Below are positions 3,331 through 64,000 of a stretch of DNA of 64,000 nucleotides, in pieces. Where the stretch lies: the NCBI GenBank assembly GCA_949775045.1, contig OX459106.1:312501-376500 (forward strand). The letters run 5' to 3'. The notes below the pieces were generated by a model, which saw only the letters and a list, made by a program, of their open reading frames with translations, was not told the origin of the DNA and did no database searches. Every line of letters starts with the position of its first letter. Position 1 is the first letter of the stretch. Both the position numbers and the translations under genes were made by a program. Source of the DNA: Metridium senile (Eukaryota; Cnidaria; Anthozoa; Actiniaria; Metridiidae).

Positions 3331-3510
3331 AACTATCCTATCCTAGGTTGTTGAGCTACGCACGCGGGCAGGTCCCTATTCTACGTTGTTGAGCTACGTA
3401 AGCATGCTTGCTTAAGGTCCCCTATTCAACGTTGTTGAGCTACGTGCGCTGGCTTGCTTAAGGTCCCTATTCTACGTTGTTGAGCTACGCACCGGGGCTT
3501 GCTTAAGGTC
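3331..3510 (+). repeat. Minisatellite interrupted by the palindromic element (left part)
   Basis: Four imperfect copies of a roughly 50-bp unit containing CTACGTTGTTGAGCTACG and GCTTGCTTAAGGTCCC. The same units in the same orientation continue at 11946-12095, so the big element inserted into this array. The last six bases (3505-3510, AAGGTC) are the left target-site duplication. Confidence 0.85.
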
Positions 3511-3689
3511 AGTAGTTTTCTTGGGATGAAATGACCCCGGAAATTGAGGTGGGATTGAGGTAGGATTGAGGCGGTGCCATGGTAACCAGGTGACTCGAGA
3601 GGATTAGCACCTTGACCAGGAAGTGAAGTGTTGCTATGGTAACCAGGTGACGCCAAAGGCTTAGTGAGCGGGCAAGTTTGGGCAAGTCT

Positions 3690-3780
3690 TTTGTTATCAA
3701 TTATAATATATAGCGCGCGCCTATTTTGAATCTTTCACTAAAACATTTGAAAGCAAATAGCATTTGGTTAGAGAAAAAAC
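3690..3780 (+). promoter_or_regulatory. Putative promoter of left PC4-like gene
   Basis: A TATAATATATA box near 3702-3712 is followed by GCGCGCGCC about 70 bp before the ATG at 3781. The mirror copy lies at 11676-11766. It is an inference from position and sequence only. Confidence 0.4.
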
Positions 3781-4224
3781 ATGGCAACTTTATTCAAGCT
3801 AGGTTCTCGAGGCTACCACGCTACCGTCCAGGAATTCCAAGGACAGATAAGAGTACATATTCGAAAGTATATTGATGGTGAAGAGAAGAACAAATTTCCA
3901 ACAAAATATGGCATAGCTTTATCGATTGAAGAATTTGAAGAGTTATTTAAAGTCATGGGTGATTTGAGCGAAATGGTAGATGTTATGGTAGAGAGTTGTT
4001 CTATGACCACACAACCAGGCGATGAGTCAGGATTGCTAACAGAGAACGAATATCAACCCCAAGCAAGAGGTTTACAACCAAGCAAGGAAAGTAGAGTGAT
4101 CGAACAGACTCCAAAACACAGCAAAAGACCACAAGAAATGAATCACCTCGCACCGAGAAAACTTTTTAAGAACAATAGACCATCAGCTAGAATGTCACAT
4201 CAAAACTCTTTCCACTATATCTAG
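3781..4224 (+). CDS. PC4-like ssDNA-binding protein (left arm copy)
   Basis: 147 residues. Residues 5-70 fit the PC4 (RNA polymerase II coactivator p15) fold: a start LFKLGSRGYHATV, a strand-turn EFQGQIRVHIRKY, then a loop, FPTKYGIALSIEEFEEL and a closing helix. This matches the PC4 pattern of V-x-x-F-x-G-x-x-x-v-x-I-R-x-Y and KxGIaLs. The C-terminal half (71-147) is basic and Ser/Gln-rich with no recognised domain. In cells PC4 proteins bind single-stranded DNA and modulate transcription and repair; here a role in the element's replication or transcription is inferred. The gene faces inward from the element end, has a TATA-like box upstream, and an AATAAA lies at about 4291. The copy at 11675-11232 is identical in protein. 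Confidence 0.8.
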   Translation: MATLFKLGSRGYHATVQEFQGQIRVHIRKYIDGEEKNKFPTKYGIALSIEEFEELFKVMGDLSEMVDVMVESCSMTTQPGDESGLLTENEYQPQARGLQPSKESRVIEQTPKHSKRPQEMNHLAPRKLFKNNRPSARMSHQNSFHYI

Positions 4225-4576
4225 TTAAACAGTTGTTTAATTCGTTAGATAATTATCGTTTATATTTTTGACATGTAAAAAATTGATTTAAAAATAAAAG
4301 CTTGTTGAAACAAATGGTTGTGTACATTTTTATTGCCTGTTATTCAAATCAACTCGTAAATGTTCGATTTAATAAAAAAGGGATTACAATCTTTTATTCA
4401 CAAAACAATGGGAAAACGTGTAAGAGATTATAGCTTATTTGTTTTTCTTTTAAAGTTTCATCAAACTATCAGAGAAGGTTTATAACTTCAAGATGAACCA
4501 TTCTTGTTTATGGTTTCGCTAAACTTCTTTTAGTTCTAAACTTTACCTAGTAGATTGTTTCTTTTAACTAGTTATA

Positions 4577-4621
4577 ATGGCAGAATTTAGTATTGATACT
4601 TCTGACTGTGAAGATATATCG
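4577..4621 (+). CDS. Small acidic protein, exon 1 (left arm)
   Basis: ATG plus 14 codons (MAEFSIDTSDCEDIS), ending in a consensus donor (CG|gtaagt). Phase 0. It joins either the acidic exon at 4748 or, in the same phase, a basic exon at 4953. Confidence 0.6.
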
Positions 4622-4747
4622 GTAAGTAAAGTTGTTTAAATTATAACTGAGTTGATTTCTTAACTCTCAGTTGTTTTATTTTTCATAATCGTTTTCCTAT
4701 CAAAGAAGAAAAGTAGTTATAATTTTTGTTTTGTTTTTTGTTACTAG

Positions 4748-4939
4748 TTTGGTGAGTTTACTGATTCTCAACTACAAGAACTGGCTTTAGATGAAAACTC
4801 ATTTGATTTGGATAATTATGTTGACGATGAAATATTATTGGAAGCCCTTTCAATCACTTCTCAACTAGAAGAACCAAACGTTATCGATGGAAATTGTGAA
4901 TGGAGCAGCTCTCATGATCAACTCCTTGAAGTTCTTTAG
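4748..4939 (+). CDS. Small acidic protein, exon 2 (left arm)
   Basis: It follows an acceptor (ttactag) and encodes 63 residues to TAG. It is rich in Asp/Glu and hydrophobics (FDLDNYVDDEILLEAL), so the 78-residue product resembles an acidic activation-domain protein. No family is recognised. The mirror exon is at 10708-10517. Composition and clean splice sites support it; transcription is unproven. Confidence 0.55.
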   Translation, partial: FGEFTDSQLQELALDENSFDLDNYVDDEILLEALSITSQLEEPNVIDGNCEWSSSHDQLLEVL

Positions 4940-4952
4940 TTATTCAAACTAG

Positions 4953-5237
4953 TCAATCGAAGAGCAACCATTCAAGAGAAAATGCACTGAACAATCCAAC
5001 GCAAAAAGAAAGCTACGCGAATTAAGTAAAAGCAATTATAATTCAAAGCTATATGCAGCACGAAAAACAACATCTGATGAACTAGCTAATCTGTTTAATG
5101 ATAAATCAAAACTTTTTACAAGGTTTTGCAAACAACAACTTATTATTCAGTGGTCTCTTGTTCAGGTTCAGAGTCAGGCTAACCAAAGAAAGAAAGAATC
5201 CCGATTAAAACTTGTGTTTGTAAACATACTTAGTTAG
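4953..5237 (+). CDS. Possible alternative basic exon (left arm)
   Basis: Open for 94 codons with no ATG at its start. It begins immediately after an AG (aaactag) and is in phase with exon 1 at 4577-4621, so skipping the acidic exon would fuse exon 1 to this Lys/Arg-rich segment (starts SIEEQPFKRKC). A bZIP- or DNA-binding-like role is only a guess from charge. The mirror copy is at 10503-10219. Confidence 0.35.
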   Translation, partial: SIEEQPFKRKCTEQSNAKRKLRELSKSNYNSKLYAARKTTSDELANLFNDKSKLFTRFCKQQLIIQWSLVQVQSQANQRKKESRLKLVFVNILS

Positions 5238-5389
5238 CTAGAGTTTAGGATTAATTGTTTTGAAACATGGAAATCTCTATAATTAACTAAAACATGTAAT
5301 AGAGAATCGAATCCCCAGAAGAAAAGCATTAACAGGAAACCAAGATTTATGCTTCAAAGTTTTACAGATATATATATATATATAATAAC

Positions 5390-5665
5390 TTATTTTGAAT
5401 AACTTACAGCCGGCTTAAGAATCATTCGGGATCTTGTTGAATATCTTTTATAGAAAAGCGTCAGGATCGAATTCATCACACTGCAAAAGGTCTTGTGTAC
5501 CAATTGATCATCTCCAATATCACATCTTCTTGGTCCAATTAAATAATTCAGGCGGAGACCAATAATCAAACTGTAGATTAAGAAAAAGCAGGAGCCCATA
5601 AATATGCTTACCACATCTCCAATAAGTTGATAATTAGTAGATAATAACTCGGCCATTATGAACAA
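5390..5665 (-). CDS. 91-codon ORF, possible decayed paralogue of the acidic gene (left arm)
   Basis: The ORF reads MFIMAELLSTNYQLIGDV and on. After about 15 codons from the second Met there is a donor-like gtaagc and, about 40 bp later, a ctacag acceptor. That layout parallels the acidic gene (MAE.., 15 codons, intron, Phe). If spliced, the next exon soon hits TGA, so either the unspliced 91-aa form or a broken paralogue is present. No domain is recognised. Confidence 0.35.
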   Translation of the reverse strand: MFIMAELLSTNYQLIGDVVSIFMGSCFFLIYSLIIGLRLNYLIGPRRCDIGDDQLVHKTFCSVMNSILTLFYKRYSTRSRMILKPAVSYSK

Positions 5666-6015
5666 GAAACAAGTAAAATAATCTTTGCAGTGATATAATC
5701 GCTAATCAGTATCTTTTGGAAGCAATTTATAAGGTTTGTTAGTACAAAAGATATAAGCATTTCAAAAAGAACCTTATTTCGCGCAACATATTAATTACGT
5801 TCAAAAACAAACATGAACACATAAAGTTTATTTTAAGCTATTTTGAGCACAAAATATATCAAACAAAGGATTGTTTTTTTACGATAAATATAACTTTGAA
5901 TTATAATTAGTGTATCTTAGCTTAAAATCCATCAGAAAAAAAAAGTTTTTTATCACGTGGTGTATGTTCAACTCCTCGATAGTCATAGTTATAGTTATAG
6001 TTGACAAGCATTAGT

Positions 6016-6126
6016 ATGGATAAAAACATTTCAAAACTTTCGGAAGAGGAATTGAGAGAAATTCAAGAAAGTTTGCATGGACAGTTTGCTATTGTTATAA
6101 CGCACAAGTGTACCTGCATGATATAA
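6016..6126 (+). CDS. 36-aa ORF or first exon (left arm)
   Basis: A short ORF starting MDKNISKLSEEELREIQ, with an amphipathic helical beginning. It is too short to judge and could be a leader exon. The mirror copy is at 9440-9330. Confidence 0.25.
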   Translation: MDKNISKLSEEELREIQESLHGQFAIVITHKCTCMI

Positions 6127-6750
6127 ATAAAATGTTGATCTTATTATTGTCTGATATAACCTTTTAAAAAAAAGAACTGTATTCTAGTTAATGGTCAAAC
6201 ACCTATGCGTTATAAACATGGATTCATTTTAAATCTTCACTTCGCATAATTTACTTCAGTTATGCGTCTAGTTCATATTGAATTTAAATTTATCATAATT
6301 AAGTAACAACAAAACGGTTCATATAGTTTTATCTCGATTCAAACAAAATATTTAACTACCTACAAAACGTATCATATAAGTCAGTCAAGAAATCAACCAA
6401 CCTTTCGAAAATCATTATCATAAAATCTCTGTGCTGCATGTGTGTTTTTATTAGTTATTCAAGATGATTGTTCACACAACTTGCGTAGTATTGTATCGAT
6501 CGCGACTAGGAAGATAAACAAAAACAAAATAGAACAACTGATATCTAAATCTTTATTTTCTATCAAAATAAGAATTACATTTATCAATGATAGCAAAGTT
6601 TATTCACTAATGGAAATGTTCATTTGGTTTGTTTATGAAAAAGTGAATAAAACCGCGTTTGTTCTCCTTACAATGGTGATAAAAGCTAAGTATGAATATT
6701 ACAAAAATCAATTTTGTTATTTATTTTGCATGACTATTATTCGTATGTAA

Positions 6751-7167
6751 TTACAATGATTTCAACTCCAACCATTTACGTTTACAGGCATATTTTCTTC
6801 TTTTTGTAGATACTTTTGAGGCTGCTTTATCTCCCTTGCGCTTATTTCTATTCATAGAGTTTTCATTTGTTATTATATATTCATAAGAGTTTCTCTCAAT
6901 CTCTTCCTGGTGTTTGAGAAGTCGTGCTAATGATTTTTGTACATTTGGTACATTATCCTCTGTTCCAGTTTCATCATAATTCTTTGAGGGAATGCATACT
7001 CCAAGTTTACTCCATTTTAACCATTTAGCGCGCTCTTTGATATCTATTCCATGAACTTGATCGAGATGATTTGCTAGTCGAGCAAGGTTAGTGCTTCCAC
7101 ATCCAAATACAGGACAGTTTCGCCTTGTGCGACCCATGCTGAGCTCTTGACTTGACCAATGTTTCAT
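6751..7167 (-). CDS. C2H2-like zinc-finger protein (left arm copy)
   Basis: 138 residues. One zinc-finger-like motif, C18-x4-C23-x10-H34-x4-H39 (CPVFGCGSTNLARLANHLDQ), is followed by a Trp/Lys-rich linker, a coiled-coil-prone middle (QKSLARLLKHQEEIERN) and a Lys/Arg-rich C-terminus (KRKGDKAASKVSTKRRKYA) likely to bind nucleic acid or act as a nuclear signal. An internal Met at residue 11 (MGRTRRNC) may be the true start. It differs from the right-arm copy at two residues (Ile/Met 41, Glu/Asp 95). Function within the element is unknown. Confidence 0.65.
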   Translation of the reverse strand: MKHWSSQELSMGRTRRNCPVFGCGSTNLARLANHLDQVHGIDIKERAKWLKWSKLGVCIPSKNYDETGTEDNVPNVQKSLARLLKHQEEIERNSYEYIITNENSMNRNKRKGDKAASKVSTKRRKYACKRKWLELKSL

Positions 7168-7309
7168 AGAAAATAATCTCTTTTTGCAATATTACATTTT
7201 TATGTATGACGGCCCGAATAAGAGGCCCGCGACGGCCCGATCAGACCCGAAGGCCCTATAGGCTTTATTTGCTCTCTCGCTCTCGTTCTGTCTCTTATTC
7301 AATTTGGCC

Positions 7310-8106
7310 CCGTCGCAACGGTTGCGCTTAATCAAAGTAGATTAAGATAAAACAAAAACTCAATGAAACAAAAACCTCATTTTATTAAACCGAAAAAAAT
7401 TATTTTCAAAACACAATTACATGCATCTAAGGCTAACGAGTATAAGAATTATAAGTTGCGTAGTTAATTATACTTTGTTTTGGAATTTCTTCCTGTACAA
7501 ATAGTTTGTTAAGTAGAAATTTCCTTTGATGTATTGCCGATTCAGTTGCCTCCTCCCAGCTGTAGTCATTATCATCCATAAGGTTTTTCTTTGTGGCCAT
7601 GATCTTTTTATAAGTAGGATCTCTTCTCAAATGATGCATCCATGTCAGTTGTTCGTTTAGAACCTCCCTCAGCTCTTTTCTGTATGTAGGCAACAAAGCA
7701 TTATTGGCTTTGGCTTGTGCTACTTCATCACTATCACCGTTTTGTTTATATTGCTGCATTGCCACTTCCAAATCTTGCTGATGCCTTTCCATTGCCTTGT
7801 GTTGCATTCTCGCCCAAACATCCTTTTTCTCATCTTCAGTAGAATCAAACTGATTTGAGTCAACACTATCCTCGCTGCTATCCTCAATACTTTCTTGATC
7901 ACTACTTGCCATGCTATCAGAACTTGATTCATCTTCCTCATAGTGGGATTGAGACATGCTATCTTCTTGAGAGTTATTTTGGGATGACTCTGCTTTGGAT
8001 GCTAACCTCCCTTATAAGCAGAGGGTTATGCTCTATTATGGGACCGGTTATCTTGTTATCGTATTTTTTTAAGAGAAATTAAATTTCTCTATGATCATGC
8101 GCGAAC
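7310..8106. other. Unique loop of the palindrome
   Basis: The only part of the element not duplicated. It is bounded on both sides by the inverted GGGCC..CTCTCGCTCTCGTTCTG blocks and carries the single-copy 174-aa gene. About 150 bp upstream of that gene (7958-8106) is AT-rich and may be its promoter. Confidence 0.8.
7433..7957 (-). CDS. 174-aa acidic/helical protein encoded in the loop
   Basis: Residues 1-45 are Ser/Asp/Glu repeats (DESSSDS, SSEDSVDS). Residues 46-155 form a compact, probably helical domain with WARMQHKAMERHQQDLE, ALLPTYRKELREVL, WMHHLRRDPTYKKIM and SWEEATESAIHQRKFLLNKL. The WxxMxxxA..LPxYRKELR..LRxDP..I pattern looks like a conserved domain seen in uncharacterised proteins of repetitive invertebrate DNA. 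That is recollection, not a search result. As the only single-copy gene of the element it may be what the arms carry or package. Coding potential is good. Confidence 0.6.
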   Translation of the reverse strand: MSQSHYEEDESSSDSMASSDQESIEDSSEDSVDSNQFDSTEDEKKDVWARMQHKAMERHQQDLEVAMQQYKQNGDSDEVAQAKANNALLPTYRKELREVLNEQLTWMHHLRRDPTYKKIMATKKNLMDDNDYSWEEATESAIHQRKFLLNKLFVQEEIPKQSIINYATYNSYTR

Positions 8107-8288
8107 GGGCCAAATTGAATAAGAGACAGAACGAGAGCGAGAGAGCAAATAAAGCCTATAGGGCCTTCGGGTCTGACGGGCCAGTTCGGGCCGATTCGGG
8201 CCGATTCGGGTTGATTCGGGCCGTCGCGGGCCTCTTATTCGGGCCGTCATACATAAAAATGTAATATTGCAAAAAGAGATTATTTTCT

Positions 8289-8705
8289 ATGAAACATTGG
8301 TCAAGTCAAGAGCTCAGCATGGGTCGCACAAGGCGAAACTGTCCTGTATTTGGATGTGGAAGCACTAACCTTGCTCGACTAGCAAATCATCTCGATCAAG
8401 TTCATGGAATGGATATCAAAGAGCGCGCTAAATGGTTAAAATGGAGTAAACTTGGAGTATGCATTCCCTCAAAGAATTATGATGAAACTGGAACAGAGGA
8501 TAATGTACCAAATGTACAAAAATCATTAGCACGACTTCTCAAACACCAGGAAGAGATTGAGAGAAACTCTTATGACTATATAATAACAAATGAAAACTCT
8601 ATGAATAGAAATAAGCGCAAGGGAGATAAAGCAGCCTCAAAAGTATCTACAAAAAGAAGAAAATATGCCTGTAAACGTAAATGGTTGGAGTTGAAATCAT
8701 TGTAA
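8289..8705 (+). CDS. C2H2-like zinc-finger protein (right arm copy)
   Basis: Mirror of the gene at 7167-6751 and 136/138 identical, with the same C18/C23/H34/H39 finger. Both copies are intact, so arm homogenisation is recent or continuing. Confidence 0.65.
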   Translation: MKHWSSQELSMGRTRRNCPVFGCGSTNLARLANHLDQVHGMDIKERAKWLKWSKLGVCIPSKNYDETGTEDNVPNVQKSLARLLKHQEEIERNSYDYIITNENSMNRNKRKGDKAASKVSTKRRKYACKRKWLELKSL

Positions 8706-9329
8706 TTACATACGAATAATAGTCATGCAAAATAAATAACAAAATTGATTTTTGTAATATTCATACTTAGCTTTTATCACCATTGTAAGGAGAACAAACG
8801 CGGTTTTATTCACTTTTTCATAAACAAACCAAATGAACATTTCCATTAGTGAATAAACTTTGCTATCATTGATAAATGTAATTCTTATTTTGATAGAAAA
8901 TAAAGATTTAGATATCAGTTGTTCTATTTTGTTTTTGTTTATCTTCCTAGTCGCGATCGATACAATACTACGCAAGTTGTGTGAACAATCATCTTGAATA
9001 ACTAATAAAAACACACATGCAGCACAGAGATTTTATGATAATGATTTTCGAAAGGTTGGTTGATTTCTTGACTGACTTATATGATACGTTTTGTAGGTAG
9101 TTAAATATTTTGTTTGAATCGAGATAAAACTATATGAACCGTTTTGTTGTTACTTAATTATGATAAATTTAAATTCAATATGAACTAGACGCATAACTGA
9201 AGTAAATTATGCGAAGTGAAGATTTAAAATGAATCCATGTTTATAACGCATAGGTGTTTGACCATTAACTAGAATACAGTTCTTTTTTTTAAAAGGTTAT
9301 ATCAGACAATAATAAGATCAACATTTTAT

Positions 9330-9440
9330 TTATATCATGCAGGTACACTTGTGCGTTATAACAATAGCAAACTGTCCATGCAAACTTTCTTGAATTTCTC
9401 TCAATTCCTCTTCCGAAAGTTTTGAAATGTTTTTATCCAT
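9330..9440 (-). CDS. 36-aa ORF (right arm copy)
   Basis: Mirror of 6016-6126 with the same caveats. Confidence 0.25.
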   Translation of the reverse strand: MDKNISKLSEEELREIQESLHGQFAIVITHKCTCMI

Positions 9441-9790
9441 ACTAATGCTTGTCAACTATAACTATAACTATGACTATCGAGGAGTTGAACATACACCACG
9501 TGATAAAAAACTTTTTTTTTCTGATGGATTTTAAGCTAAGATACACTAATTATAATTCAAAGTTATATTTATCGTAAAAAAACAATCCTTTGTTTGATAT
9601 ATTTTGTGCTCAAAATAGCTTAAAATAAACTTTATGTGTTCATGTTTGTTTTTGAACGTAATTAATATGTTGCGCGAAATAAGGTTCTTTTTGAAATGCT
9701 TATATCTTTTGTACTAACAAACCTTATAAATTGCTTCCAAAAGATACTGATTAGCGATTATATCACTGCAAAGATTATTTTACTTGTTTC

Positions 9791-10066
9791 TTGTTCATAA
9801 TGGCCGAGTTATTATCTACTAATTATCAACTTATTGGAGATGTGGTAAGCATATTTATGGGCTCCTGCTTTTTCTTAATCTACAGTTTGATTATTGGTCT
9901 CCGCCTGAATTATTTAATTGGACCAAGAAGATGTGATATTGGAGATGATCAATTGGTACACAAGACCTTTTGCAGTGTGATGAATTCGATCCTGACGCTT
10001 TTCTATAAAAGATATTCAACAAGATCCCGAATGATTCTTAAGCCGGCTGTAAGTTATTCAAAATAA
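9791..10066 (+). CDS. 91-codon ORF (right arm copy)
   Basis: Mirror of 5665-5390 with identical protein. Confidence 0.35.
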   Translation: MFIMAELLSTNYQLIGDVVSIFMGSCFFLIYSLIIGLRLNYLIGPRRCDIGDDQLVHKTFCSVMNSILTLFYKRYSTRSRMILKPAVSYSK

Positions 10067-10218
10067 GTTATTATATATATATATATATCTGTAAAACTTT
10101 GAAGCATAAATCTTGGTTTCCTGTTAATGCTTTTCTTCTGGGGATTCGATTCTCTATTACATGTTTTAGTTAATTATAGAGATTTCCATGTTTCAAAACA
10201 ATTAATCCTAAACTCTAG

Positions 10219-10503
10219 CTAACTAAGTATGTTTACAAACACAAGTTTTAATCGGGATTCTTTCTTTCTTTGGTTAGCCTGACTCTGAACCTGAACAAGA
10301 GACCACTGAATAATAAGTTGTTGTTTGCAAAACCTTGTAAAAAGTTTTGATTTATCATTAAACAGATTAGCTAGTTCATCAGATGTTGTTTTTCGTGCTG
10401 CATATAGCTTTGAATTATAATTGCTTTTACTTAATTCGCGTAGCTTTCTTTTTGCGTTGGATTGTTCAGTGCATTTTCTCTTGAATGGTTGCTCTTCGAT
10501 TGA
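10219..10503 (-). CDS. Possible alternative basic exon (right arm)
   Basis: Mirror of 4953-5237. Confidence 0.35.
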   Translation of the reverse strand, partial: SIEEQPFKRKCTEQSNAKRKLRELSKSNYNSKLYAARKTTSDELANLFNDKSKLFTRFCKQQLIIQWSLVQVQSQANQRKKESRLKLVFVNILS

Positions 10504-10516
10504 CTAGTTTGAATAA

Positions 10517-10708
10517 CTAAAGAACTTCAAGGAGTTGATCATGAGAGCTGCTCCATTCACAATTTCCATCGATAACGTTTGGTTCTTCTAGTTGAGAAGT
10601 GATTGAAAGGGCTTCCAATAATATTTCATCGTCAACATAATTATCCAAATCAAATGAGTTTTCATCTAAAGCCAGTTCTTGTAGTTGAGAATCAGTAAAC
10701 TCACCAAA
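10517..10708 (-). CDS. Small acidic protein, exon 2 (right arm)
   Basis: Mirror of 4748-4939, preceded by the same acceptor. Confidence 0.55.
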   Translation of the reverse strand, partial: FGEFTDSQLQELALDENSFDLDNYVDDEILLEALSITSQLEEPNVIDGNCEWSSSHDQLLEVL

Positions 10709-10834
10709 CTAGTAACAAAAAACAAAACAAAAATTATAACTACTTTTCTTCTTTGATAGGAAAACGATTATGAAAAATAAAACAACTGAGAGTTAAGAAA
10801 TCAACTCAGTTATAATTTAAACAACTTTACTTAC

Positions 10835-10879
10835 CGATATATCTTCACAGTCAGAAGTATCAATACTAAATTCTGCCAT
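10835..10879 (-). CDS. Small acidic protein, exon 1 (right arm)
   Basis: Mirror of 4577-4621 with the same donor. Confidence 0.6.
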
Positions 10880-11231
10880 TATAACTAGTTAAAAGAAACA
10901 ATCTACTAGGTAAAGTTTAGAACTAAAAGAAGTTTAGCGAAACCATAAACAAGAATGGTTCATCTTGAAGTTATAAACCTTCTCTGATAGTTTGATGAAA
11001 CTTTAAAAGAAAAACAAATAAGCTATAATCTCTTACACGTTTTCCCATTGTTTTGTGAATAAAAGATTGTAATCCCTTTTTTATTAAATCGAACATTTAC
11101 GAGTTGATTTGAATAACAGGCAATAAAAATGTACACAACCATTTGTTTCAACAAGCTTTTATTTTTAAATCAATTTTTTACATGTCAAAAATATAAACGA
11201 TAATTATCTAACGAATTAAACAACTGTTTAA

Positions 11232-11675
11232 CTAGATATAGTGGAAAGAGTTTTGATGTGACATTCTAGCTGATGGTCTATTGTTCTTAAAAAGTTTTCT
11301 CGGTGCGAGGTGATTCATTTCTTGTGGTCTTTTGCTGTGTTTTGGAGTCTGTTCGATCACTCTACTTTCCTTGCTTGGTTGTAAACCTCTTGCTTGGGGT
11401 TGATATTCGTTCTCTGTTAGCAATCCTGACTCATCGCCTGGTTGTGTGGTCATAGAACAACTCTCTACCATAACATCTACCATTTCGCTCAAATCACCCA
11501 TGACTTTAAATAACTCTTCAAATTCTTCAATCGATAAAGCTATGCCATATTTTGTTGGAAATTTGTTCTTCTCTTCACCATCAATATACTTTCGAATATG
11601 TACTCTTATCTGTCCTTGGAATTCCTGGACGGTAGCGTGGTAGCCTCGAGAACCTAGCTTGAATAAAGTTGCCAT
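11232..11675 (-). CDS. PC4-like ssDNA-binding protein (right arm copy)
   Basis: Protein identical to the left copy. Here the gene runs in the same direction as the cadherin gene whose stop is 458 bp upstream, so cadherin read-through transcripts could include it in sense. Confidence 0.8.
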   Translation of the reverse strand: MATLFKLGSRGYHATVQEFQGQIRVHIRKYIDGEEKNKFPTKYGIALSIEEFEELFKVMGDLSEMVDVMVESCSMTTQPGDESGLLTENEYQPQARGLQPSKESRVIEQTPKHSKRPQEMNHLAPRKLFKNNRPSARMSHQNSFHYI

Positions 11676-11945
11676 GTTTTTTCTCTAACCAAATGCTATT
11701 TGCTTTCAAATGTTTTAGTGAAAGATTCAAAATAGGCGCGCGCTATATATTATAATTGATAACAAAAGACTTGCCCAAACTTGCCCGCTCACTAAGCCTT
11801 TGGCGTCACCTGGTTACCATAGCAACACTTCACTTCCTGGTCAAGGTGCTAATCCTCTCGAGTCACCTGGTTACCATGGCACCGCCTCAATCCTACCTCA
11901 ATCCCACCTCAATTTCCGGGGTCATTTCATCCCAAGAAAACTACT

Positions 11946-12095
11946 AAGGTCCATATTCTACGTTGTTGAGCTACGTACGCGGGCTTGCTTAAGGTCCCTA
12001 TTCTACGTTGTTGAGCTACGTACGCGGGCTTAGCTTGCGTAAGGTTCCTATTCTACGTTGTTAAGCTACGTATGCTGGCTTGGGCTTGCTTAGGG
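11946..12095 (+). repeat. Minisatellite (right part) beginning with the target duplication
   Basis: Three further units of the CTACGTTGTTGAGCTACG..GCTTGCTTAAGGT repeat, in the same orientation as 3331-3510. The first six bases (AAGGTC) duplicate 3505-3510. Confidence 0.85.
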
Positions 12096-12132: not shown

Positions 12133-62845
<50,713 letters not shown>

Positions 62846-62879: not shown

Positions 62880-64000
62880 AATCCTTTTACTCCGACGAAG
62901 GGATAAAGCTCGAAACGTCAGTAAAGTTAAGTCAACATTTTTTACGGTGTTACAAATTTCATTGTATGACCTATCGTTTGTATCAAACACCGACGCAGCC
63001 TATACTAGTTTACTCGCTAGTTTCTATTTCTATTTTTTTACGGTGTTACAAATTTCATTATATTACCTATCGTTTATATCAAACACCGACGCAGCCTACA
63101 CTAGTTTACTCGCTAGTTTCTATTTCTATTCTTTAAGGTGTTACAAATTTAATTATATTACCTATCGTTTATATCAAACACCGACGCAGCCTATACTAGT
63201 TTACTCGCTAGTTTCTATTTCTATTCTTTAAGGTGTTACAAATTTAATTATGTTACCTATCGTTTATATCAAACACCGATGCAGCCTACACTAGTTTACT
63301 CGCTAGTTTCTATTTCTATTCTTTAAGGTGTTACAAATTTCATTCTATTACCTATCGTTTATATCAAACACCGACGCAGCCTATACTAGTTTACTCGCTA
63401 GTTTCTATTTCTATTCTTTAAGGTGTTACAAATTTAATTATGTTACCTATCGTTTATATCAAACATCGACGCAGCCGATACTAGTTTACTCGCTAGTTTC
63501 TATTTCTATTCTTTAAGGTGTTACAAATTTAATTATATTACCTATCGTTTATATCAAACACCGATGCAGCCTACACTAGTTTACTCGCTAGTTTCTATTT
63601 CTATTCTTTAAGGTGTTACAAATTTAATTATGTTACCTATCGTTTATATCAAACACCGATGCAGCCTACACTAGTTTACTCGCTAGTTTCTATTTCTATT
63701 CTTTAAGGTGTTACAAATTTAATTATGTTACCTATCGTTTATATCAAACATCGACGCAGCCGATACTAGTTTACTCGCTAGTTTCTATTTCTATTCTTTA
63801 AGGTGTTACAAATTTAATTATGTTACCTATCGTTTATATCAAACACCGATGCAGCCTACACTAGTTTCTCGCTAGTTTCTATTTCTATTCTTTAAGGTGT
63901 TACAAATTTAATTATGTTACCTATCGTTTATATCAAACATCGACGCAGCCGATACTAGTTTACTCGCTAGTTTCTATTTCTATTCTTTAAGGTGTTACAA
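62880..64000 (+). repeat. ~95-bp tandem array reaching the window edge
   Basis: About eleven units of GGTGTTACAAATTTAATTA..TTACCTATCGTTTATATCAA..CACCGACGCAGCCTATACTA..GTTTACTCGCTAG. C/T variants (CACCGACG, CACCGATG, CATCGACG) recur in a higher-order pattern. Confidence 0.92.

What the first reader, a model, noticed from the sequence alone, without database searches (positions are those of the whole stretch)
3511..11945. Giant palindromic mobile element with precise ends and 6-bp target duplication
Seen: two ~3.8-kb inverted arms mirrored at 7728, an ~0.8-kb loop, AGTAG/CTACT ends, AAGGTC on both sides, insertion into a tandem repeat. Known: Maverick/Polinton elements make 6-bp duplications, begin 5'-AG and have long terminal inverted repeats, but carry polymerase B, integrase, ATPase and capsid genes, and their repeats are normally up to about 1 kb. 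Inference: this is a non-autonomous, snap-back relative in which almost all genes are diploid within the element. I know of no described family of this form.
Basis: partly seen in the sequence, partly recalled or inferred. Interest (0 to 1): 0.9.

Follow-up and report, generated by a model that had tools for sequence, protein, structure and literature searches.

The report
Palindromic satellite elements of Maverick transposons
This is one copy of a family of small mobile DNA elements that read almost the same on both strands, carry two copies of most of their genes, and appear to borrow the ends and machinery of a larger virus-like transposon (a Maverick/Polinton) in the same animal genome.

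Summary
In detail: an 8,435-bp palindrome (arms 3511-7316 and 8101-11945, 784-nt loop) with (AGT)2/(ACT)2 ends and a 6-bp duplication AAGGTC. An assembly artefact is very unlikely. The own genome holds at least 15 related palindromes, 14 with a perfect 6-bp duplication. It also holds Polintons of about 17 kb (integrase and protease; weaker capsid and ATPase matches; 210-bp terminal repeats) whose left end, with a PC4 gene, matches the outer 1.4 kb of the arms. The inner part (a CCHH-motif gene, plus a helical-protein gene in the loop) has no match in those Polintons. Palindromy is not a one-off: among 146 merged CCHH-gene hits there are 51 outward-facing pairs and no inward-facing ones, down to about 30% identity. 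Six further loci read all have 6-bp duplications; five are palindromes, one has a truncated arm. Arms behave like two alleles: four loci carry one identical heterozygote, others are mosaics, and own arms are more alike than shuffled ones. Best reading: non-autonomous, self-complementary satellites of Polintons. Helper dependence and snap-back replication are inferred. Helpers for the other families' ends were not found, because the genome search stayed busy.

The parts
3505..3510 (.). left target-site duplication AAGGTC
11946..11951 (.). right target-site duplication AAGGTC
3511..11945 (.). whole palindromic element, 8,435 bp
3511..3516 (+). (AGT)2 terminal repeat; mirrored as (ACT)2 at 11940-11945; same motif type as vertebrate Mavericks (PMC8097293)
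3511..7316 (+). left arm
8101..11945 (-). right arm
3511..4933 (+). outer arm segment homologous to the left end of the full-length Polintons
10523..11945 (-). mirror copy of the outer segment
3567..3664 (+). two subterminal direct repeats (41 bp each, 80% alike); mirrored at 11792-11889
3781..4224 (+). PC4-domain gene, 147 aa; 99.3% identical to the Polinton protein
11232..11675 (-). second copy of the PC4 gene
4934..7316 (+). inner arm segment (core), no nucleotide match in the Polinton pieces read
6751..7167 (-). CCHH-motif gene (138 aa), copy 1, reading outward; zinc-finger-like by my reading of the motif, no Pfam family supports that
8289..8705 (+). CCHH-motif gene, copy 2 (two amino-acid differences), reading outward
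8177..8248 (.). GC-rich short tandem repeat at the arm/loop border that differs in length between the arms
7317..8100 (.). single-copy loop, 784 nt
7433..7957 (-). loop gene, 174 aa, acidic head and four predicted helices; relatives include an Exaiptasia hypothetical protein
3370..3510 (.). 45-bp tandem repeat in the left flank (target array)
11946..12082 (.). same tandem repeat in the right flank, same direction (the call lists the array from 11944)

Best explanation
The element is one copy of a lineage of small, non-autonomous, palindromic satellites of Polintons. It carries Polinton termini (with a Polinton end gene, PC4) on both sides and two genes of its own (a CCHH-motif protein and an acidic helical protein). 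No integrase or polymerase was found in it, so it would be copied and integrated in trans by a Polinton's protein-primed PolB and DDE integrase, which makes 6-bp duplications. Because the genome is self-complementary, a displaced single strand can fold back into a near-complete duplex, much as adeno-associated virus snap-back genomes do. That could create palindromes, let one arm overwrite the other, and spare a second initiation. SHOWN: insertions with 6-bp duplications, ends shared with Polintons (family 1), many loci, both arms transmitted together to new loci, exchange between arms, and palindromes in several divergent families. INFERRED: replication and integration by the helper, fold-back replication, any packaging, and any role of the two private genes.
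For: Copies: the end query (40 of 52 candidates scored) pairs up into 15 palindrome-family elements, the same 15 loci as the best 15 loop hits (40 of 121 candidates scored). Perfect 6-bp duplication in 14 of 15; L013 has none. Helper: three paired elements of 16.9, 16.9 and 17.3 kb (L028/29, L030/31, L026/27) with 210-bp terminal repeats; in L028/29 integrase core 2.9e-9 with chromodomain and adenovirus-type protease 8.7e-5 (above Pfam's cut-offs), capsid-like 0.0014 and ATPase-like 2.6e-4 (below them). Ends: the first 290 bp of both ends of L012 and L013 equal the left end of L028; the window copy differs at 3 positions. Outer 1,380 columns against L031: L012 right arm 2 mismatches and 2 gaps, L011 3 and 2, L012 left 4 and 0, window 10 and 2. 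The (AGT)2//(ACT)2 motif is that of Mavericks, tied to jumping-back (PMC8097293, passages). Arms: L015-L018 carry the same A2/B core arms (0 differences between loci; 36 mismatches and 13 gaps between arms) at four loci with four different duplications; window and L009 share the same two CCHH alleles; L013 and L014 are mosaics; the loops of L012-L018 are identical over 774 nt though their arms differ; own-arm distance 9.4 against 29.2 shuffled, 2 of 20,000 shuffles as low. Open frames in family 1: PC4 18 of 18, CCHH 30 of 30, loop gene 15 of 15 full-length matches. Generality: 51 outward-facing, 0 inward-facing, 3 same-strand pairs among 146 merged hits; L037-L042 6 of 6 with 6-bp duplications; L040 arms carry a relative (57%, 178 aa) of the Polinton right-end gene.
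Against: No helper with the ends of families 2-4 has been shown; the search did not complete. The core genes do not match the Polinton pieces read. One palindrome (L013) and two of four paired Polintons (C2, C12) lack a matching duplication. Family 3 (L039) ends in (ACT)2//(AGT)2, the mirror of the usual motif. 44 of 146 CCHH hits are not in outward-facing pairs, many of them fragments, and some carry stops; only 150 of 258 candidates were scored, so some partners may be missing. Five of the six further loci were picked because they were pairs, so their palindromy is partly selected; their duplications are not. The Polintons' PolB was seen only as broken ORFs with a DTDS motif (recalled), with no Pfam PolB match. 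No Pfam family identifies the CCHH or loop genes. Ordinary amplification keeps arm differences, so fold-back copying cannot be the routine mode.
Confidence: 0.78

Rival explanations
1. A defective snap-back by-product of this Polinton: one end of a full-length element was copied back on itself, amplified a little, and has no lasting lineage of its own.
For: Outer 1.4 kb of the arms is the Polinton left end, including PC4; symmetric and asymmetric snap-back genomes are a known class of defective particles in AAV (PMC8235507, passages).
Against: The core and the loop have no match in the Polinton pieces read; the private genes are open in all full-length family-1 matches; outward-facing pairs occur in four rank classes down to about 30% identity, so the form is old or recurs constantly.
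Confidence: 0.12
2. An unrelated fold-back DNA transposon (in the manner of Galileo or Foldback) that only picked up Polinton ends in some families; its mobility does not depend on Polintons.
For: Own gene pair; family 3 ends differ in type; very long inverted repeats, chimeric copies and TIR recruitment are known in Galileo (PMC3573991, passages).
Against: 6-bp duplications in 20 of 21 palindrome-family loci, (AGT)2 ends in families 1, 2 and 4, up to 290 bp of end identical to a Polinton, and a relative of a Polinton right-end gene in family 4. No transposase match among the palindrome ORFs given to Pfam (5 of the window element, 9 of L037 and L039-L042); the longest ORF listed in those loci is 258 aa.
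Confidence: 0.1
3. Arms are kept alike by ordinary host gene conversion after integration, as in chromosomal palindromes, not by replication of the element.
For: Mosaic arms with internal breakpoints are what gene conversion makes; heterozygous arms survive amplification.
Against: Does not explain how palindromes arose, nor how loops stay identical over seven loci while arms differ; does not exclude element-borne copying. This concerns the homogenising step only and is compatible with the rest, so its odds do not add to the others.
Confidence: 0.4
4. Assembly artefact: a fold-back (missing-adapter) read built into the assembly.
For: Perfect palindromes are a known long-read artefact (general knowledge).
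Against: Flanks are not mirrored; loci have different 6-bp duplications; arms differ in fixed ways shared between loci. No reads were available to check.
Confidence: 0.01

Closest known systems
Maverick/Polinton elements (polintoviruses)
   Same: 6-bp duplications, (AGT)2//(ACT)2 ends, shared terminal 1.4 kb and PC4 gene with full-length copies in the same genome
   Different: 4.4-8.5 kb in the palindromes read, without later insertions, against about 17 kb; no PolB, integrase, ATPase or capsid match among the ORFs tested; main inverted repeats of about 1.9-3.9 kb that make up most of the element, against 46-1,447 bp in intact vertebrate Mavericks (PMC8097293, passages)
AAV snap-back (self-complementary) subgenomes
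   Same: Self-complementary genomes carrying one end of a parent, symmetric or with a loop, replicated when Rep and helper functions are supplied (PMC8235507, passages)
   Different: AAV ones are found as particles; these are integrated, multi-copy, with own genes and in several divergent families
Symmetric recombinants of adenovirus 12 (SYREC; recalled, nothing read; one search listed nothing on it)
   Same: Palindromes made from one end of a protein-primed linear genome
   Different: By-products of virus culture with host DNA; no integrated lineage
Galileo and other Foldback transposons
   Same: Long inverted repeats, chimeric copies, longest repeats in non-autonomous copies (PMC3573991, passages)
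   Different: 7-bp duplications and P-type transposase; TIRs to about 1.26 kb; genes like the pair seen here are not known to me in them (recalled)
Virophages and other satellites of larger DNA viruses
   Same: Small element that probably lives on a bigger virus-like element's enzymes
   Different: Virophages have their own capsid genes (recalled); none found here

Membership tests
Maverick/Polinton (autonomous) | 6-bp target-site duplication | tested here: met
   14 of 15 family-1 palindromes and 6 of 6 others
Maverick/Polinton (autonomous) | terminal repeat motif such as (AGT)2//(ACT)2 | tested here: met
   family 3 (L039) has (ACT)2//(AGT)2
Maverick/Polinton (autonomous) | DDE integrase, PolB, ATPase, protease and capsid genes | tested here: not met
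   Among the window element's ORFs Pfam recognises only PC4 above cut-off; 9 ORFs of other palindromes give nothing above cut-off; the full-length relative has integrase and protease, with weaker ATPase and capsid matches
Non-autonomous Polinton derivative or satellite | shares ends with an autonomous element in the same genome | tested here: met
   family 1 only:
Non-autonomous Polinton derivative or satellite | families 2-4 share ends with an autonomous element | not tested
   the request with the L037 end did not complete; ends of L039-L042 were not sent. By eye the ends printed do not resemble the family-1 Polinton ends beyond the first 6-9 bases
Non-autonomous Polinton derivative or satellite | moves by the Polinton's enzymes | not testable with these tools
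   needs biochemistry
Snap-back genome | near-complete self-complementarity with one parental end at both termini | tested here: met
Snap-back genome | formed by fold-back or template switching in replication | not testable with these tools
   inferred from form
Foldback/Galileo | 7-bp duplication and P-superfamily transposase | tested here: not met
   6-bp duplications; no transposase among the ORFs given to Pfam

The most novel reading that the evidence does not exclude
There is an old superfamily of obligately palindromic mobile elements, marked by a CCHH-motif gene and often an acidic helical-protein gene, that live as satellites on Polintons by taking over their ends and end genes. Their two arms act as two alleles of one small genome, which are inherited together, recombine and are periodically made homozygous by fold-back copying.
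Probability: 0.5. Interest if true: 0.92.

Novelty: new variant of a known kind. Interest (0 to 1): 0.85.

Why it matters
If right, Polintons have genetic satellites just as DNA viruses do, and palindromy is a stable way of life for a mobile element, not an accident. The arms give a natural record of fold-back copying and arm-to-arm exchange, so a question that is hard to study (how protein-primed linear elements replicate and recombine in animals) becomes readable from sequence. Transcription across such arms would also make long double-stranded RNA, which matters for silencing (inference).

Tried and rejected
Assembly artefact: rejected (flanks not mirrored, shared arm differences, different duplications). 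Segmental duplication of one locus: rejected; the roughly 300-bp flanks of the 14 loci do not match each other beyond one 33-bp hit between L019 and the window. The 16.35-kb pair on C3 (23538604-23554954), first taken for a Polinton, is an old palindrome with a nested insertion bounded by 364-bp direct repeats and other inserts. The label zinc finger, which I used while working, has no Pfam support: of 37 members scanned the commonest match is DUF5810 in 21, best E 0.001, and no zinc-finger family is among the 25 shown of 30; I now write CCHH-motif gene.

Led nowhere: viral contigs with PC4, CCHH and loop-gene alignments and genome contigs with CCHH (patterns matched, no relative confirmed); phage records with CCHH and PC4 (no match); PHROGs (best 4.8e-4, for PC4); PDB by sequence, PC4 only (three PC4 entries); predicted fold of the loop protein (pLDDT 71.9, pTM 0.43), best PDB match E 1.6. 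The viral fold library and the CCHH fold met a busy machine and were not tried again. Papers, seen as listings (titles and starts of abstracts) unless said otherwise: Polinton+PC4 none; Polinton+TIR+palindrome+non-autonomous 10; Maverick+Polinton+cnidaria+duplication 4; nonautonomous+Maverick 13; adenovirus symmetric recombinants, 2,416 papers with two of three terms, 20 listed; Maverick transposon+palindrome 3; protein-primed snap-back 14; satellite wording 79, 12 listed; sea anemone+palindromic 5; Galileo 9, 6 listed. None seen describes these elements. Passages only were read of PMC6431247, PMC8097293, PMC8235507 and PMC3573991. The library holds openly licensed papers only, and Repbase was not available, so a catalogue entry or a paper elsewhere cannot be excluded.
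Full report
WHAT IS THERE. The window holds an inverted repeat with arms 3511-7251 and 8205-11945. Compared base by base, the first 3,730 bp differ at two positions, 6880 and 7045. Beyond them a GC-rich short repeat differs in length between the arms, after which pairing goes on to 7316/8101. The loop is 784 nt. The ends are AGTAGT and ACTACT, with AAGGTC outside each. The insertion lies in a 45-bp tandem repeat that runs in one direction on both sides, which a fold-back read could not produce.

GENES. Each arm holds a PC4-domain gene (Pfam 1.5e-9; the PDB matches are PC4/p15) and an outward-reading gene for a small protein with a C-x4-C...H-x4-H motif. I read that motif as zinc-finger-like, but no Pfam family supports it, so I call it the CCHH gene. 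It has 93 matches in the protein database, one of them (P0001) marked as the window's own. The loop holds one gene for a 174-aa protein with an acidic head and four predicted helices and 22 matches, one named in Exaiptasia. A database protein (P0093) joins a CCHH head to a loop-gene-like body, which suggests the two genes work together.

COPIES. The window is G000:C12:312501-376500 of a 389-Mb assembly. The 301-bp end finds 40 scored matches of 52 candidates. By position they form seven palindromes of 8.4-8.5 kb, four elements of 7.3 kb, two of 6.2 kb, one of 4.6 kb with a truncated arm, one old 16.35-kb copy swollen by insertions, three paired Polintons of about 17 kb, and unpaired ends. The loop query finds the same 15 palindrome-family loci at 98-100% (40 of 121 candidates scored), so the count is a lower bound. 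Of these 15, 14 have perfect 6-bp duplications; L013 has none.

HELPER. L028/29, L030/31 and L026/27 are full-length Polintons of 16.9, 16.9 and 17.3 kb with 210-bp terminal repeats. In L028/29 Pfam finds an integrase core with chromodomain and an adenovirus-type protease above its cut-offs, and ATPase-like (2.6e-4) and double-jelly-roll-like (0.0014) matches below them; no PolB family was matched, and I recognise PolB only from a DTDS motif in broken ORFs. The copies are 99.1-99.98% alike over the longest aligned pieces and 98.3% and 99.4% over two shorter ones. A fourth pair of ends, on C12, is older (94-99% to the others in the pieces compared). Two of these four have matching duplications (TTTAGT, ATCAAC); C2 and C12 do not. 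L022 and L023 carry the left end, but their right end was not in the stretch read at the expected distance. Size and ends fit intact vertebrate Mavericks: 16,862 +/- 1,678 bp, 6-bp duplications, (AGT)2//(ACT)2 (PMC8097293, passages).

HOW THE PALINDROME RELATES TO IT. Element positions 1-1423 match the Polinton LEFT end (97.2% with gaps; 10 mismatches over 1,380 columns), including PC4 at 99.3% protein identity. From 1424 inward, and in the loop, nothing matches the Polinton pieces at DNA level, nor do the two core proteins match them by tblastn up to E 1. Both ends of L012 and L013 equal the L028 left end over 290 bp. Different palindrome arms have different nearest Polintons in the outer segment: L012 right arm L031 (2 mismatches, 2 gaps), L014 left arm L022/L023 (7 and 2). 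So ends have been exchanged with helpers more than once, or diverged with them (inference).

ARMS AS ALLELES. Core arms fall into types A1, A2, B and B' (my names). L015-L018 are one A2/B heterozygote at four loci: no core difference between loci, 36 mismatches and 13 gaps between arms. The window and L009 share the same pair of CCHH alleles. So normal spread copies both arms. Yet L019 and L020 are B/B and B'/B' with 1 and 2 differences. L014 has both outermost parts of A2 type and both middles of B type, and L013 has an A2 arm that turns to A1 near the loop. The loops of L012-L018 are identical over 774 nt although their arms differ. Own-arm distance averages 9.4 against 29.2 for shuffled pairs of ten elements, with 2 of 20,000 shuffles as low; L016-L018 (identical to L015) and L021 (truncated) were dropped before that test, and dropping L009 too again gives 2. 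The old C3 copy was not in it. Arm-to-arm exchange is therefore well supported. Whether it happens during replication or in the chromosome is not known.

SELECTION. Among full-length matches in family 1, PC4 is open in 18 of 18 palindrome copies, the CCHH gene in 30 of 30, and the loop gene in 15 of 15. Crude pN/pS values are 0.17, 0.46 and 0.32 on very few changes, so this is suggestive only. Partial copies were not counted. In other families some CCHH copies carry stops and the L039 loop gene is truncated.

A WIDER SET. The CCHH protein query gives 150 scored matches of 258 candidates. After merging, 146 hits contain 51 outward-facing pairs less than 4 kb apart, no inward-facing pair and 3 same-strand pairs; 102 of the 146 hits are in outward-facing pairs. 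The pairs spread over four classes that I cut by rank: about 96-100% identity (15 pairs), 68-90% or higher in fragments (8), 47-49% (11) and 28-47% (17). I read six further loci: five chosen as pairs and one (L038) as a single hit. L037 is 5,378 bp, identical over 2,667 bp per arm, with the loop gene inside the arms. L038 is 3,456 bp with a truncated arm. L039 is 5,916 bp with arms 97% alike. L040 is 4,527 bp, L041 4,385 bp, and L042 4,748 bp with both private genes in its arms. All six have perfect 6-bp duplications. Five begin with AGTAGT; L039 begins with ACTACT. L040 carries in each arm a gene 57% identical to the Polinton's RIGHT-end gene, as family 1 carries the LEFT-end gene; the other outer genes found no match among the Polinton ORFs. 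In the three Polintons themselves the inverted matches are the 210-bp terminal repeats and short subterminal repeats between the pieces, and none within a piece except one in the flank of L028, so palindromy is a property of the small elements.

MECHANISM. Stated for Mavericks in the literature: protein-primed PolB, integrase, and end repeats that would allow jumping-back (PMC8097293). Inferred here: the palindromes use these in trans. Self-complementary genomes are a known product of helper-dependent linear replication: AAV snap-back genomes, symmetric or with a loop, replicate when Rep and helper functions are supplied (PMC8235507, passages). A palindrome needs only one kind of end, can become double-stranded by folding, and can repair one arm from the other; I think these explain why the form persists. 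Against fold-back as the routine mode: heterozygous arms are transmitted unchanged.

WHAT IS NOT SETTLED. Helpers for families 2-4 were not found, because the genome search was busy through. Host, age and distribution in other species are open. The literature search covers openly licensed papers only. I rate the element as a new variant of a known kind (non-autonomous Polinton relatives), with a fair chance that it is a satellite class of its own.

Noticed in passing
window 62937-64000 and 40197-40377: A tandem array of a 95-bp unit at the window end; a two-copy array with a similar-looking unit lies at 40197-40377.
   Followed up: no
L032 1522-8697 with L033: The old C3 palindrome contains an insertion flanked by 364-bp identical direct repeats, probably an LTR retrotransposon, plus two smaller inserts.
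   Followed up: partly
L039 1061-6976: Palindrome with reversed terminal motif, 5'-ACTACT...AGTAGT-3', not among the three vertebrate Maverick motif types in the passages seen of PMC8097293.
   Followed up: partly
P0093 (database protein): One protein joins a CCHH head like the arm gene to a body like the loop gene, so the two palindrome genes can exist as a fusion.
   Followed up: partly
L025 303-836: A diverged Polinton-type end (about 89%) whose PC4 match is in two pieces; its other end was not looked for.
   Followed up: no
L013 (G000:C9:3061253-3070353): The only family-1 palindrome without a matching 6-bp duplication (TAAGTA / TGTGGG); could be a recombinant between two insertions.
   Followed up: no
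L040 about 1262-1520 and L041 468-737: Outer arms of family 4 are rich in short GC-rich repeats that translate as repetitive runs, probably not genes.
   Followed up: no
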